The notes below the pieces were generated by a model. The model ran no database searches. It saw only the letters and a list, made by a program, of their open reading frames with translations, and was not told the origin of the DNA. Made by a program: the position numbers and the translations under genes. This document shows positions 60,042 through 64,000 of a DNA stretch of 64,000 nt, piece after piece. The stretch's first letter is position 1; the number at the start of each line of letters is the position of its first letter. Source of the stretch: an uncultured bacterium (GTDB lineage Bacteria; Bacillota; Clostridia; Lachnospirales; Lachnospiraceae); NCBI GenBank assembly GCA_947383005.1, contig CANDBT010000020.1, forward strand, positions 18,789-82,788. Direction: 5' to 3'.

Positions 60042-61649
60042 TCAAAAAACAAGCAGCCCCCGGCTGTCATAGACGGAAGCCCCCGCATCATTCCCGCAGC
60101 GGATGGCACGGTCAAGCCCCATGATCGTGGCCACCGCACCGTCAATCTTCTCCGTGGATTTCTCCTTGTCCGCCTTGATGTTCCCCGCAGGGTCGGTGCG
60201 GATGAAGATGTTATCCATCATCCACCGGAGTACCGGATGCCCGCCGTGGGCAATGCTCTGCTCCAGCACCAGCTTCATCAGCTCCTTGGTGGGCGGGGAC
60301 ATATCCTTAAAGCCCTGCCCGAACGGAACCACCGTGAAGCCCATGCCCTCAAGGTTCTGCACCATCTGTACTGCGCCCCACCGGTCAAAGGCGATCTCCC
60401 GGATGTTGAACCGCTCACCGAGCCGTTCAATGTATTTCTCGATAAAGCCGTAATGCACCACGTTCCCCTCCGTGGTCATCAGCTTCCCCTGCCGCTCCCA
60501 CACATCGTAGGGGACATGGTCGCGCCGCACACGCAGCTCCAGCGTTTCCTCCGGCACCCAGAAGTACGGCAGGATACAGTATTTATCCTCCTCATCCAGC
60601 GGCGGGAACACCAGCACGAACGCCGTGATGTCCGTGGTGGAGGACAAGTCCAGCCCGCCGTAGCAGACGCGCCCCTCCAGACCATCCTCCGAAACCGGGA
60701 AGGCGCAGGCGTCCCATTTATCCATGGGCATCCACCGCACCGCCTGTTTCACCCACTGGTTTAAGCGGAGCTGCCGGAAACTGTTCTCCTCCCCCGGATT
60801 CTGCTTTGCCGACTCGCAGGCGGCCTCCACCTTGTCAATCCCCACCGTGATATTCAAAGAGGGGTTCGCTTTCTTCCACACCTTCGGGTCCGTCCAGTCG
60901 TCCGCCTCATCCGCGCCGTAGATGACCGGGTAGAAGGTCGGGTCAATCTTCCTGCCCTCGATGATGTCCTTTGCCTTCTGGTGCGTTTCGTAGCAGATGG
61001 AATGGGTGTCCGTCCCCGCCGTGGTGATGAGGAAATACAGCGGCTGCATCCTGGCATCCCCGGAGCCCTTGGTCATGACATCGAACAGTTTCCGGTTCGG
61101 CTGCGTGTGCAGCTCGTCAAACACCACGCCGTGGATGTTGAAGCCGTGCTTGGAATACGCCTCCGCCGAAAGCACCTGGTAGAAGGAGTTGGTGGGCGTG
61201 TAGATGATCCGTTTCTGCGATGCGAGTATCTTCACCCGCTTGGAAAGGGCAGGGCACATCCGCACCATATCCGCCGCCACATCAAAAACGATAGTGGCCT
61301 GCTGCCGGTCGGCGGCGCACCCGTACACTTCCGCGCGTTCCTCCCCGTCCCCGCAGGTCAAAAGCAGCGCCACGGCCGCCGCAAGCTCCGACTTTCCCTG
61401 TTTCTTCGGAATCTCAACGTATGCCGTGTTGAACTGGCGGTAGCCATTGGGCTTCAGCGTTCCGAAAATATCCCGGATGATCTGCTCCTGCCAGTCGATC
61501 AGTTCAAAGGGCTTCCCCGCCCATGTCCCCTTGGTGTGGCAGAGGCTCTCGATGAACATCACGGCAAAATCGGCGGCATCCTTGTCATAGCGGCTGTCCT
61601 TCGCTTTGAATTTTGTCGGCTTATATTTTTTCAGTTTCCGCATTGCCAT
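60042..61649 (-). CDS. Terminase large subunit
   Basis: The protein has 535 residues from the ATG at 61649 (GGAGG eight bases upstream). The ATPase has the Walker A-like VEIPKKQGKSELAAAVALLL near 80-99 and Walker B HGVVFDELH near 175. The nuclease domain shows CYGGLDLSSTTDITAFVLVF near 335 and STEKIDGAVATIMGLDRAIR near 505, giving the acidic metal ligands. It cuts concatemeric DNA and drives packaging. No recognisable small terminase lies directly upstream, which is unusual. Confidence 0.95.
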   Translation of the reverse strand: MAMRKLKKYKPTKFKAKDSRYDKDAADFAVMFIESLCHTKGTWAGKPFELIDWQEQIIRDIFGTLKPNGYRQFNTAYVEIPKKQGKSELAAAVALLLTCGDGEERAEVYGCAADRQQATIVFDVAADMVRMCPALSKRVKILASQKRIIYTPTNSFYQVLSAEAYSKHGFNIHGVVFDELHTQPNRKLFDVMTKGSGDARMQPLYFLITTAGTDTHSICYETHQKAKDIIEGRKIDPTFYPVIYGADEADDWTDPKVWKKANPSLNITVGIDKVEAACESAKQNPGEENSFRQLRLNQWVKQAVRWMPMDKWDACAFPVSEDGLEGRVCYGGLDLSSTTDITAFVLVFPPLDEEDKYCILPYFWVPEETLELRVRRDHVPYDVWERQGKLMTTEGNVVHYGFIEKYIERLGERFNIREIAFDRWGAVQMVQNLEGMGFTVVPFGQGFKDMSPPTKELMKLVLEQSIAHGGHPVLRWMMDNIFIRTDPAGNIKADKEKSTEKIDGAVATIMGLDRAIRCGNDAGASVYDSRGLLVF

Positions 61650-61764
61650 TCCGGTCACCTCCCCAAAGACGGCATCAAAAATGGCCTGCCAGCAGCAAGC
61701 CGTAATCTATCAGTACAAGACACAGAGCCTTGCGGCTCCGCTCTTGGAATGTCCAGTTTTAATT

Positions 61765-61959
61765 TCAGAAAAGTGCGTCAATCTTATCGTACTCGGCCTT
61801 AAGCCTCGTGTATTCCTGCGCTATGCACTGCCTCCTGAATCCGTTTTTGCAGGCTTTCCCCTCTTTCCAAAGGCGGTCAAGCTCCGCTTTCCGTTTCGTC
61901 AGTACCTCAATTCCGTTTCCTTTCTGTGCATCTCTCAAATCCCTTTCAAATCTTGTCAT
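61765..61959 (-). CDS. Small phage protein of unknown function
   Basis: The protein has 64 residues from the ATG at 61959 (GCGGAGGAGAAAGGC upstream). It is basic and helical: FERDLRDAQKGNGIEVLTKR, KAELDRLWKEGKACKNGF, ending YTRLKAEYDKIDALF. No family is recognised. It precedes the terminase by 115 bp. It is too short to be a normal small terminase. Confidence 0.6.
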   Translation of the reverse strand: MTRFERDLRDAQKGNGIEVLTKRKAELDRLWKEGKACKNGFRRQCIAQEYTRLKAEYDKIDALF

Positions 61960-62085
61960 GCCTTTCTCCTCCGCTTTCTGTGTTTTCCCTTTCGGTAGTA
62001 CACATATTCGCTCTTTCTGCGGATAATAGCAAGCGGATTTTGAACATATACTGTGCAAATATCTGCAGGAGAAATTGTGTAGTTT

Positions 62086-62495: not shown

Positions 62496-62705
62496 TCATC
62501 CCCTGCCGTAGCACCTGTGGATGGCTTCCAGAATCTGTTCCTGCTCCTTCCCGTCCACCCCGATGCTCTCCAGAGCCTCCCTGGTGCCGCAGTCCGGGCA
62601 GAGCGGCGTTCTGCCGTCCGCCCGCGAAACTGCCGGCCTCCCGTGGTAGGTCTGCCCGCATCGTGGGCAGACCGAAATCCTCGCAATATTATCTGTTTCT
62701 TTCAT
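62496..62705 (-). CDS. Small zinc-ribbon phage protein
   Basis: The protein has 69 residues. Two CxxC pairs (VCPRCGQTYHG and PLCPDCGTREALESIG) make a zinc ribbon at residues 10-45. The rest is helical (KEQEQILEAIHRCYG). The start at 62705 lies inside the end of the cyclotransferase gene (17-base overlap), and its stop overlaps the next possible start by 4 bases. Such ribbons often bind nucleic acid, but no partner is seen. Confidence 0.7.
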   Translation of the reverse strand: MKETDNIARISVCPRCGQTYHGRPAVSRADGRTPLCPDCGTREALESIGVDGKEQEQILEAIHRCYGRG

Positions 62706-63381
62706 CGCTGTTTCCTCCTAAGTCCATATTCTCCTGCCGTGGGGCAAGCGCCTCCACCTTGCTGCGGAACATCCGGCCTGCGGATGCGCGGTAACGGCTG
62801 CCCCTGCTGTTCTGGAGCCAGAAATATTTCCCATCGAATCCCAGCACGGTGTAGTTGCCCGTGCAGCCGTTCTTCCGGTTGGTCACCATGAAGCAGGCGT
62901 CCCCGGTCTTCCACCCGCCCGGAAATTTCTCCCTGCTGTCGGCATACGCCCGTTCCAGAAATGCCTCGTCGAATCCGAAACTCTGGTAGCCCTGCCTGCA
63001 GGTCTCCATATAGAACCCGCTCGGAACCCCAAGCGGGCGGTCCTCATGCATGATGTAGACGAAAACCTTCCGCAGCCGCACCTTTCCGGTCTTAATCCCT
63101 TTAAGGGGCAGCTCCATCTCCTTTTTGTAGTAAAAGTGGGGGAAGCCCTCGTAGCGGTCAAGCGCCGCCTCATCCTCCTCCGTCACCGCCCATGCCGCCA
63201 CGGGGACGCTTGCGCCCTCCTGTGGCTCGATGGTGAGGTAGGAGCCGGTCCTGCTGCCCTTGAACAGCAGACGGTAGCCCTCAATCACCGAAGTGCCGAT
63301 AATCCTCGCCCCGGGGCAGCGCATCCGCATCTGCCGGATGTTTAAGTTTGAGCCGTAAGCAATGTAGTATCTTTTTTCCAT
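62689..63381 (-). CDS. Gamma-glutamylcyclotransferase (AIG2)-like protein
   Basis: The protein has 230 residues from the ATG at 63381. The fold signature is complete: YIAYGSNLNIRQM at residues 6-18 (the YGSN substrate loop), a catalytic-type glutamate in ALDRYEGFPHFYYKKEMEL near 85, and VFVYIM. Cyclotransferases release gamma-glutamyl or similar groups as 5-oxoproline. The last 65 residues (ACFMVTNRKNGCTGNYTVLG, SRYRASAGRMFRSKVEALA) are an extra domain I cannot name. Directly upstream is an amidoligase, its usual partner in predicted peptide-modifying systems. Confidence 0.85.
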   Translation of the reverse strand: MEKRYYIAYGSNLNIRQMRMRCPGARIIGTSVIEGYRLLFKGSRTGSYLTIEPQEGASVPVAAWAVTEEDEAALDRYEGFPHFYYKKEMELPLKGIKTGKVRLRKVFVYIMHEDRPLGVPSGFYMETCRQGYQSFGFDEAFLERAYADSREKFPGGWKTGDACFMVTNRKNGCTGNYTVLGFDGKYFWLQNSRGSRYRASAGRMFRSKVEALAPRQENMDLGGNSDERNR

Positions 63382-63427
63382 CTTGAAATCCATCCTTTCC
63401 GAAGGGGGCACCCTTCTACCACCTTAA

Positions 63428-63490
63428 GACCGCCGGAGCGGTCCACTGCCGTTTCCGCGGCAGGAAAGGTGGCAGGAGGCTACCTCCTGC
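63428..63490. other. Three consecutive hairpins in the amidoligase-cyclotransferase gap
   Basis: GACCGC/GCGGTC (63428-63443), CTGCCG/CGGCAG (63446-63463) and GCAGGAGG/CCTCCTGC (63472-63490) follow one another. The last contains an AGGAGG-like sequence. They may control messenger stability or translation of the two enzymes. Confidence 0.5.
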
Positions 63491-63497
63491 GTTCCCT

Positions 63498-64000
63498 TCA
63501 AGCGGCCCTTCCGTTTCGGAAGGATGCGTCCCCTGCAAGCCTCCTTGTGAGGATGTCCCTTGCGGTCTTGAATTCGTCCCCGATGAAGCCGAGCCGGAGG
63601 AGCCATGTCCGCATGGCGTATTTCGGGTTCTCGCTCTGCTGCGGCTTCGGGCTTGCCGTCTTTACTTCCTTCGCCATCTGGCTGAGTGCGAGGCAGAGCT
63701 GGATGTAGCTTTTAAGCTGCCCTGCGTGGAGGCCGCCCCTGCGCCCGTCGCCCGGTTCGTCGAACTGGAAGAGCCGGAACTCGACCGTGCCTTTGGTGAA
63801 GGTTGCGTGGTAATTGAGCATATGGTAGCGGCTGTCGTTGTAGTGCTGGTCCCTGCCGTAGCTTGCGCCGTGGCTTGTGTACCAGATGTCCGCAAGGGCC
63901 GCCATCGTGGAAGGTTTCTTTCTGTTGACCTGCTCCAAAAACCGTGGGTCAACCGTGCGGCAGTAGCGGTTCATCCTCCAGCGGTCAAGGTTTAAGGCAT
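63498..64000 (-). CDS. Amidoligase family enzyme, C-terminal part (runs off the window)
   Basis: The frame is open to the window edge; an ATG at 63974 has GGAGG before it but the reading ALNLDRWRMNRYC continues upstream without a stop. About 167 residues are visible. MAALADIWYTSHG and the core YHMLNYHATF, then GTVEFRLFQFDEPGDG are hallmarks of the Amidoligase_2 family (glutamine-synthetase fold, COOH-NH2 ligases). It ends with a helical region, LLRLGFIGDEFKTARDILTR. These enzymes form amide bonds on peptides or proteins; the substrate is unknown. The cyclotransferase follows 117 bp downstream. Confidence 0.82.
   Translation of the reverse strand, partial: ALNLDRWRMNRYCRTVDPRFLEQVNRKKPSTMAALADIWYTSHGASYGRDQHYNDSRYHMLNYHATFTKGTVEFRLFQFDEPGDGRRGGLHAGQLKSYIQLCLALSQMAKEVKTASPKPQQSENPKYAMRTWLLRLGFIGDEFKTARDILTRRLAGDASFRNGRAA

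What the first reader, a model, noticed from the sequence alone, without database searches (positions are those of the whole stretch)
62689..64000. Phage-borne amidoligase next to a gamma-glutamylcyclotransferase-like protein
An Amidoligase_2-type enzyme (core TVEFRLFQF) lies just upstream of an AIG2-like cyclotransferase (YGSN and DRYEG motifs) with an extra C-terminal domain. In predicted amidoligase systems these pair up: one would attach amino acids to a peptide or protein, the other remove or cyclise the group. Here they are embedded in a packaging operon, before the large terminase. The target, possibly a host or phage protein or a small peptide, is not known to me. This is the best candidate for an undescribed system in the window.
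Basis: partly seen in the sequence, partly recalled or inferred. Interest (0 to 1): 0.75.

Follow-up and report, generated by a model that had tools for sequence, protein, structure and literature searches.

The report
Mobile amidoligase–cyclotransferase pair with dead paralogue
Two neighbouring phage genes look like a matched pair of enzymes, one making and one cutting the same kind of amide bond; the pairing is already known, and here it is seen to move as a unit in phages and conjugative-type elements, while these phages also keep an older third gene that looks like an inactivated copy of the bond-making enzyme.

Summary
Window 63498-63998(-) is the C-terminal half of an Amidoligase_2 protein (B), cut by the contig end. 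Window 62689-63411(-) is a GGCT/AIG2 protein (G). An IMG/VR contig with identical protein sequences in this part (L003) shows the whole locus: C5-methyltransferase, V, DUF4314 (S), DUF6809, B, G, zinc-ribbon-like Z, then TerL.

The pairing is not new: several phage papers report it and some credit Iyer et al. 2009. What this work adds:
(1) B and G come and go together. Among 35 loci chosen by terminase: B+G+ 16, B+G- 1, B-G+ 0, neither 18. Their distances correlate at r 0.91, and 0.90 after TerL.
(2) The pair also sits in conjugative-type elements.
(3) The 'second amidoligase' annotated in such phages, V, is a degenerate homologue: most catalytic positions are replaced or deleted, the C-terminal tail is kept. 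V and S occur about as often without B as with it.

Best reading: a mobile write/erase pair for a gamma-glutamyl-type amide. The target is unproven; the host envelope is the least unlikely. New variant of a known kind.

The parts
63498..63998 (-). C-terminal half of the Amidoligase_2 protein (B), from about residue 149-150 of 315; carries the EFR motif and the C-terminal tail shared with V; cut by the contig end
   Evidence: Pfam PF12224 63.6 bits, profile 149-244; contig end; position in the full-length relative; full-length L003 protein 180.3 bits over profile 2-244
62689..63411 (-). Gamma-glutamyl cyclotransferase-like protein (G); ORF as listed, likely start near 63381 (MEKRYY)
   Evidence: PF06094 44.7 bits; PHROG 2520 177.4 bits; Glu of DRYEG aligned with human GGCT E98
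62689..62910 (-). Lineage-specific C-terminal extension of G (about residues 168-240); role unknown
   Evidence: Present in 9 of 38 aligned G proteins; no Pfam family above cut-off there
62496..62705 (-). Small zinc-ribbon-like protein (Z) overlapping the end of G; mostly travels with B-G
   Evidence: PHROG 2945 80.1 bits; in 35 terminase-chosen loci with B in 12 of 17, without B in 1 of 18
60042..61658 (-). Large terminase downstream of the cassette (context, used as backbone marker)
   Evidence: PF20441 155.6 bits and PF03354 78.6 bits

Best explanation
B and G form a self-contained, mobile two-enzyme module (often followed by Z). B is inferred to use ATP to form an amide on a glutamyl-type carboxylate. 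G is inferred to remove such a group by cyclising the gamma-glutamyl moiety to 5-oxoproline and freeing the amine. They would be writer and eraser of the same bond. Shown here: gene content, conservation of the putative catalytic residues, and joint gain, loss and diversification. Inferred: both activities and the shared substrate. The target is not shown; the least unlikely is a host cell-envelope gamma-glutamyl site (about 0.35), as proposed in print for podoviral modules, because the pair also sits in conjugative-type elements, there beside a NlpC/P60 hydrolase (one region read) or a thioester/SpaA surface adhesin. V is a separate core phage gene: a degenerate amidoligase that has probably lost catalysis and keeps the tail, perhaps as a binding or adaptor protein.
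For: B: the full-length relative scores 180.3 bits to PF12224. E20, E22, D71, E83, H120, H122, R206, N211, E222 and R224 are identical in 28 of 28 non-redundant B proteins. G: YGSN and the Glu aligned to human E98 are invariant in the 38 aligned. Given B with adequate flanks, G lies within 3.5 kb in 42 of 42 type-1, 41 of 41 type-2 and 3 of 3 distant loci. Chosen by terminase, 35 usable of 80 fetched: B+G+ 16, B+G- 1, B-G+ 0, neither 18, Fisher p 4e-9, not corrected for kinship. On a tree of 67 terminases the B label needs 14 changes, at least 5 on well-supported branches. B-G Mantel r 0.91, 0.90 after removing TerL; S, also next to or near B, gives 0.52 and 0.41 with B. Same pair in conjugative-type contexts. 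V degenerate.
Against: No activity has been measured and no structure could be predicted (tool switched off). In the phage strips read, no envelope gene adjoins B-G. One type of conjugative-element context puts B straight after a C5-methyltransferase, which does not favour an envelope target. In 7 of the 27 survey regions with G, G is 1.8-6.4 kb from B. The B-G correlation could partly come from the two being neighbours; S is an imperfect control for that. The split of B into two types in the Mantel set comes from choosing loci with two queries; within each type r is 0.68 and 0.77. The five supported independent contrasts for B against G cannot reach p<0.05.
Confidence: 0.5

Rival explanations
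1. B modifies a phage- or element-encoded protein or peptide (for example V or S, or a virion protein made next door), and G reverses it.
For: In these phages V, S, B, G lie in one strip before the terminase; V and B share a tail that would suit a common partner.
Against: In 35 terminase-chosen loci V and S are about as frequent without B (14 and 13 of 18) as with it (15 and 15 of 17; p 0.66 and 0.40); B-G stands without V and S in conjugative-type elements; the C-terminus of S is variable, unlike a ligation tag.
Confidence: 0.15
2. Auxiliary metabolism: the pair makes and breaks gamma-glutamyl metabolites and feeds glutamate or nitrogen metabolism of the host.
For: Proposed in print for an amidoligase and a GGCT of Phage-ZRK32 (PMC10945688, passages read). 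[quoted passage not shown]
Against: In the passages read, that proposal rests on growth effects and on gene absence in the host, and the authors call part of it speculation; a metabolic role does not explain the surface-adhesin neighbours in conjugative-type elements.
Confidence: 0.15
3. DNA modification or anti-restriction: B amidates a modified base, together with the neighbouring methyltransferases.
For: C5-methyltransferase directly before B in 12 of 33 survey regions (one of the 12 confirmed by Pfam, 261 bits); methyltransferases before V in the phages.
Against: In two phages with V but without B the methyltransferases also adjoin V, so they may follow the backbone rather than B; no nucleic-acid amidoligase of this family is known to me (recalled).
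Confidence: 0.12
4. Addiction or conflict pair: unchecked B harms the cell and G is the antidote.
For: B without G is rare: 1 of 17 terminase-chosen loci. In the five insertion-broken B loci with sequence beyond B, G is there (whole ORF in L009, L047, L523, L524; a part at the contig edge in L557); the sixth, L255, ends at the insertion.
Against: No match of B or G in PADLOC at E<=0.01; that G outlives B says nothing about the loss of G.
Confidence: 0.1

Closest known systems
Firmicutes Amidoligase_2 + AIG2 gene neighbourhoods of Iyer et al. 2009 (PMC3268129, not held; known to me from citing papers and from recall)
   Same: Same two families side by side in Firmicutes (recalled).
   Different: I do not recall from it the separable V-S module, the degenerate status of V or the joint gain and loss of B-G; I could not read it.
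Terrisporobacter phage TPDSL_ph1 and C. clostridioforme LM41 prophages phi13-alpha and phi13-epsilon
   Same: Both papers report two amidoligases and one GGCT (passages); TPDSL_ph1 was read here gene by gene.
   Different: In TPDSL_ph1 the first 'amidoligase' is V: it matches PHROG 2443, but has no Pfam Amidoligase_2 match at E<=0.5, and the V family lacks most catalytic residues. The LM41 sequences were not examined; the same is likely there.
Podoviral peptidoglycan modification module (PSA-HP1, RIO-1, phiEco32, LUZ24 and others)
   Same: Amidoligase and GGCT together in a phage (PMC5498523, PMC11945000, passages read).
   Different: The PSA-HP1 module also carries a second amidoligase, an ATP-grasp enzyme and a glutamine amidotransferase; none was found among the neighbours tested here.
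Tn6164 Orf22-Orf23-Orf24
   Same: Amidoligase, AIG2/GGCT-like protein, phage terminase in that order, after a 'virulence-related protein' (Orf21), a name also given to V (PMC3485107, one passage of a table).
   Different: In the passage seen it is a table entry without a proposed function; the sequence was not fetched.

Membership tests
Amidoligase_2 (PF12224) | Profile match above the curated cut-off | tested here: met
   Window fragment 63.6 bits; full-length relative 180.3 bits; cut-off 22
Amidoligase_2 (PF12224) | Conserved putative catalytic/ATP-binding acids, HxH and EFR | tested here: met
   28 of 28 non-redundant B proteins for ten positions. The window itself holds only the part from about residue 150. 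That these positions are catalytic is inferred from invariance.
Amidoligase_2 (PF12224) | ATP-dependent amide ligation; glutamine-synthetase-like fold | not testable with these tools
GGCT / AIG2 (PF06094) | Profile match, YGSN loop and catalytic Glu | tested here: met
   44.7 bits; Y13 G14 S15 N16 and E82 invariant in the 38 aligned; aligned to human GGCT E98 (that E98 is catalytic is recalled)
GGCT / AIG2 (PF06094) | Release of 5-oxoproline from a gamma-glutamyl compound | not testable with these tools
   Needs an enzyme assay
Podoviral peptidoglycan modification module | Amidoligase plus GGCT | tested here: met
Podoviral peptidoglycan modification module | ATP-grasp enzyme and glutamine amidotransferase in the same module | tested here: not met
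   No such Pfam match among the cassette and neighbour proteins tested (7 of the window; 10 of L003, L094, L095 and L097); other parts of the phages were not scanned
Amidoligase (for V, filed in PHROG 2443) | Homology to the amidoligase core | tested here: met
   hhalign of V without the shared tail against B: score 66, E 5.2e-10 (one comparison); best of 100 column shuffles 20.2
Amidoligase (for V, filed in PHROG 2443) | Catalytic residues | tested here: not met
   Of 93 V: H120 column T 48, C 14; H122 column S 31, E 23, Q 17, A 15; R224 column P 85; E22 column N 73; E222 column S 51; regions with E83, R206 and N211 deleted; the E20 column keeps E in 11 and the D71 column D or E in 41

The most novel reading that the evidence does not exclude
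V is a retired amidoligase kept as a core phage protein because its conserved C-terminal tail binds the same partner as the active enzyme. V would then be an adaptor or a decoy: it marks or shields the site that mobile B-G modules (carried by rival phages and conjugative elements) write on and erase. This would make B-G and V-S two sides of a mobile-element conflict over one gamma-glutamyl modification.
Probability: 0.15. Interest if true: 0.8.

Novelty: new variant of a known kind. Interest (0 to 1): 0.5.

Why it matters
The amidoligase-GGCT pairing recurs in phage annotations as a prediction without a known substrate. Here it behaves as one mobile unit in phages and in conjugative-type elements, which makes a two-gene test worthwhile. 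A gene that annotation counts as a second amidoligase is very probably inactive, so experiments aimed at 'two ligases' could go astray. If V's tail and B's tail bind the same partner, V is a ready bait for the unknown target.

Tried and rejected
S (DUF4314) as a peptide tag or dedicated substrate: judged unlikely, because its C-terminus varies and its presence is independent of B.

Two active amidoligases per phage: rejected for the V family on catalytic positions. The first sign was that the only significant BLASTP match of V to B is 75 residues at the C-terminus.

A catalogued defence system: no PADLOC match at E<=0.01 for B, V, S, G or Z; the methyltransferase matches methyltransferase models, best an orphan one.

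A structured RNA: no Rfam family at gathering score in four loci.

Genes that take the place of B-G in phages with V-S only: 88 loci examined. The slot holds mostly small ORFs that I could not assign, and they gave no clue to the target.

B as the most conserved gene of the locus: an early impression from one clade; rejected, since B is more identical than TerL in only 59 of 400 pairs.

The larger table (67 loci: B+G+ 20, B+G- 1, B-G+ 0, neither 46) as the main evidence: set behind the 35-locus table, because part of the 67 were chosen by V, which inflates both V and the 'neither' cell.

A limit of the gene calling: the iterated V and B profiles each pick up the other's tail; proteins were assigned by the better score.

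Full report
1. What is in the window. The amidoligase ORF at 63498-63998(-) matches PF12224 over profile positions 149-244 (63.6 bits), and the ORF at 62689-63411(-) matches PF06094 (44.7 bits). The window ends where the contig ends (C20, 82,788 bp), so the amidoligase (B) is cut. A search of the same genome found no other PF12224 match, and DNA from a relative covering V, S and the first half of B found only two short matches of 78 and 57 bases, both on the same contig. Whether the gene is whole in the strain cannot be told.

2. The whole locus from relatives. The IMG/VR contig of L003 (L082 is an overlapping stretch of it) is identical to the window's B fragment (166 of 166 residues) and to G (240 of 240). 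Its order is: C5-cytosine methyltransferase, V (251 aa), S (76 aa, DUF4314, 101.7 bits), DUF6809 (93 aa), B (315 aa, PF12224 180.3 bits), G, Z (zinc-ribbon-like), and after a gap with small ORFs the large terminase. The same order, with small differences in the small genes, is seen in two 'Ca. Heliusvirales' gut phages and in Terrisporobacter phage TPDSL_ph1.

3. B looks like a complete enzyme. In 28 non-redundant B proteins E20, E22, D71, E83, H120, H122, R206, N211, E222 and R224 (numbering of L003) are identical in all 28. No convincing solved relative was found by sequence. G aligns to human gamma-glutamyl cyclotransferase, with its invariant Glu at human E98; that E98 is catalytic is recalled.

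4. V is a degenerate homologue of B. The only significant BLASTP match of V to B is the 75-residue C-terminal tail (41% identity). Profile comparison without the tail (V 1-164 against B 1-236) still aligns 117 columns in order, score 66, E 5.2e-10 for this single comparison; the best of 100 column-shuffled B profiles scored 20.2, the reversed profile 19.1, and the unrelated S and G profiles 11.7 and 20.0. Among 93 V proteins the H120 column has T in 48 and C in 14, the H122 column S, E, Q or A in 86, the E222 column S in 51, the R224 column P in 85, the E22 column N in 73; the stretches with E83 and with R206 and N211 are missing. Two columns are less clear-cut: E20 keeps E in 11, and D71 keeps D or E in 41. 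In the tail V keeps the shared residues (G213, G216, R223 and G232 in 93 of 93). Mean conservation in V is 0.53 in the core and 0.73 in the tail; in B 0.63 and 0.66. I conclude that V has very probably lost ligase activity and is kept for its tail. Two papers count two amidoligases in such phages (PMC11253131 and PMC11318856, passages). In TPDSL_ph1 one of the two is V; the LM41 sequences I did not examine.

5. Two modules. Loci chosen by B show G within 3.5 kb in 42 of 42, 41 of 41 and 3 of 3 cases, V in 39, 40 and 0, S in 34, 37 and 0 (loci with too little flank and near-copies were left out). To avoid choosing by B, I chose loci by the window's terminase: of 80 returned, 35 had enough upstream sequence and were distinct. 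B+G+ 16, B+G- 1 (L289), B-G+ 0, neither 18 (Fisher p 4e-9, not corrected for kinship). V is in 15 of 17 with B and 14 of 18 without (p 0.66), S in 15 of 17 and 13 of 18 (p 0.40), Z in 12 of 17 and 1 of 18 (p 8e-5). Loci chosen by a V from an Erysipelothrix phage, 46 usable of 80: 43 have V and S but not B or G, 2 have all, 1 has V only. A joint set of 67 distinct terminases gives B/G 20/1/0/46, but part of it was chosen by V. On its terminase tree the B label needs 14 changes, at least 5 on well-supported branches; in five independent supported contrasts G went with B in 4.9 on average and never against it, too few for significance.

6. Joint diversification. In 50 dereplicated loci the distances of B and G correlate at r 0.91, and 0.90 after removing the terminase. 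S, which lies next to or near B, gives 0.52 and 0.41 with B, and V 0.42 and 0.26. Terminases up to 89% identical carry B and G of two types that are only about 50% identical. The two types come from two different queries, so the split itself is by choice; what is informative is that G follows B while the terminase does not. Within each type B-G is 0.68 and 0.77, B-terminase 0.10 and 0.52.

7. Outside phages. PF12224 is in 28 of 299 genomes sampled from the family and 34 of 398 from the phylum, the window's own included. In 33 wider regions from the family survey G was found in 27: within 500 bp of B in 20, and 1.8 to 6.4 kb away in 7. Of the other six, four reach a contig end next to B, and two hold only weak, divergent amidoligases. 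In 29 loci of the phylum survey with about 1.5 kb flanks, G was found in 23. Three settings recur: the phage strip; B-G after a VirB4-like ATPase gene (AAA_10 and TraG P-loop matches in the two tested), in the one such region read gene by gene followed by a NlpC/P60 hydrolase; and B directly after a C5-methyltransferase in 12 of 33 regions. All nine of these twelve that have enough flank hold a giant ORF next to B or G; the two tested carry a thioester domain and 8 or 14 SpaA domains, and by eye end in a sortase-type signal. One region has B and G as an apparent two-gene unit facing away from its neighbours, between two small HTH regulators. That these elements are conjugative is inferred from VirB4-like, coupling-protein or partition genes; I did not delimit them.

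8. Mechanism. From family knowledge, Amidoligase_2 enzymes should form amides with ATP (a prediction) and GGCT enzymes release 5-oxoproline from gamma-glutamyl compounds. That two such enzymes are gained, lost and diversified together argues that they act on one product. The substrate is open. I place the cell envelope first (about 0.35) because the pair is carried both by phages and by conjugative-type elements, which share the host envelope as a point of contact and exclusion, because surface and wall genes adjoin it in some of the latter, and because it was proposed for podoviral modules (PMC5498523, PMC11945000). This is weak evidence. A protein, metabolite or DNA target remains possible.

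9. Relation to the literature. Papers of which I saw passages: PMC11318856, PMC11253131, PMC3485107, PMC5513430, PMC5498523, PMC11945000, PMC10945688, PMC10145940, PMC12427128, PMC3414803, and PMC7824862 (a reference-list entry only). Iyer et al. 2009 is not held; what I say of it comes from citing papers and recall. Searches for 'DUF4314' and for 'amidoligase' with 'pseudoenzyme' found no paper in this library, which lacks most subscription journals and preprints. So I cannot say that the status of V is unpublished, only that these searches did not find it.

10. Verdict. The finding is real and its pairing is right, but the pair is a known kind. To my knowledge new are the separation into two modules, the joint gain and loss of B-G, and the degenerate partner V.

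Noticed in passing
L009:2437-5908, L047:2437-5908, L523:1461-4952, L524:1477-4971; also L255 and L557: Elements with three adjacent tyrosine recombinases (RIT-like, about 3.5 kb) are inserted in the amidoligase gene. Four insertions lie at the same codon, right after the first His of the HxH motif, in both orientations and in amidoligases of different types: two copies of one element in one genome (L009, L047) and two copies of another, with recombinases 37-40% identical to the first, in a second genome (L523, L524). In L255 and L557 the break is near residue 205-210; L557 shows the same amidoligase end on both sides, so it may be misassembled. Of 30 loci fetched with the recombinase in the family survey, one adjoins an amidoligase, many having short flanks.
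   Followed up: partly
window 61979-62005(-); L003:5507 and 7997: A conserved leader (ACTACCGAAAGGGAAAACA, behind a sequence that looks like an extended -10) precedes B in 69 of 90 type-1 and 17 of 79 type-2 loci (not dereplicated), V in 2 of 140, Z in 3 of 91, and 0 of 168 G, 0 of 137 S and 0 of 163 TerL genes. In the window it stands before the small ORF ending at 61765. It suggests that B-G(-Z) has its own promoter.
   Followed up: partly
L231, L236 and relatives: Amidoligase and GGCT lie beside or around a giant thioester-domain/SpaA adhesin gene in an element with a C5-methyltransferase; L231 also has an S-adenosylmethionine synthetase and an actin-like protein gene.
   Followed up: partly
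L052:5466-6498: Amidoligase read in two overlapping frames, probably a frameshift.
   Followed up: no
L525:1334-1642: Amidoligase after a VirB4-like gene that stops after about 109 residues, with no RIT-like recombinase match in the fetched stretch.
   Followed up: no
G000:C126 (L552): The window's own genome has RIT-like recombinases near the start of contig C126; whether this has to do with the contig end inside the amidoligase is unknown.
   Followed up: no
L102, L103: V is annotated 'virulence-related protein' in a Streptococcus and an Erysipelothrix phage; nothing seen here speaks for a role in virulence.
   Followed up: partly
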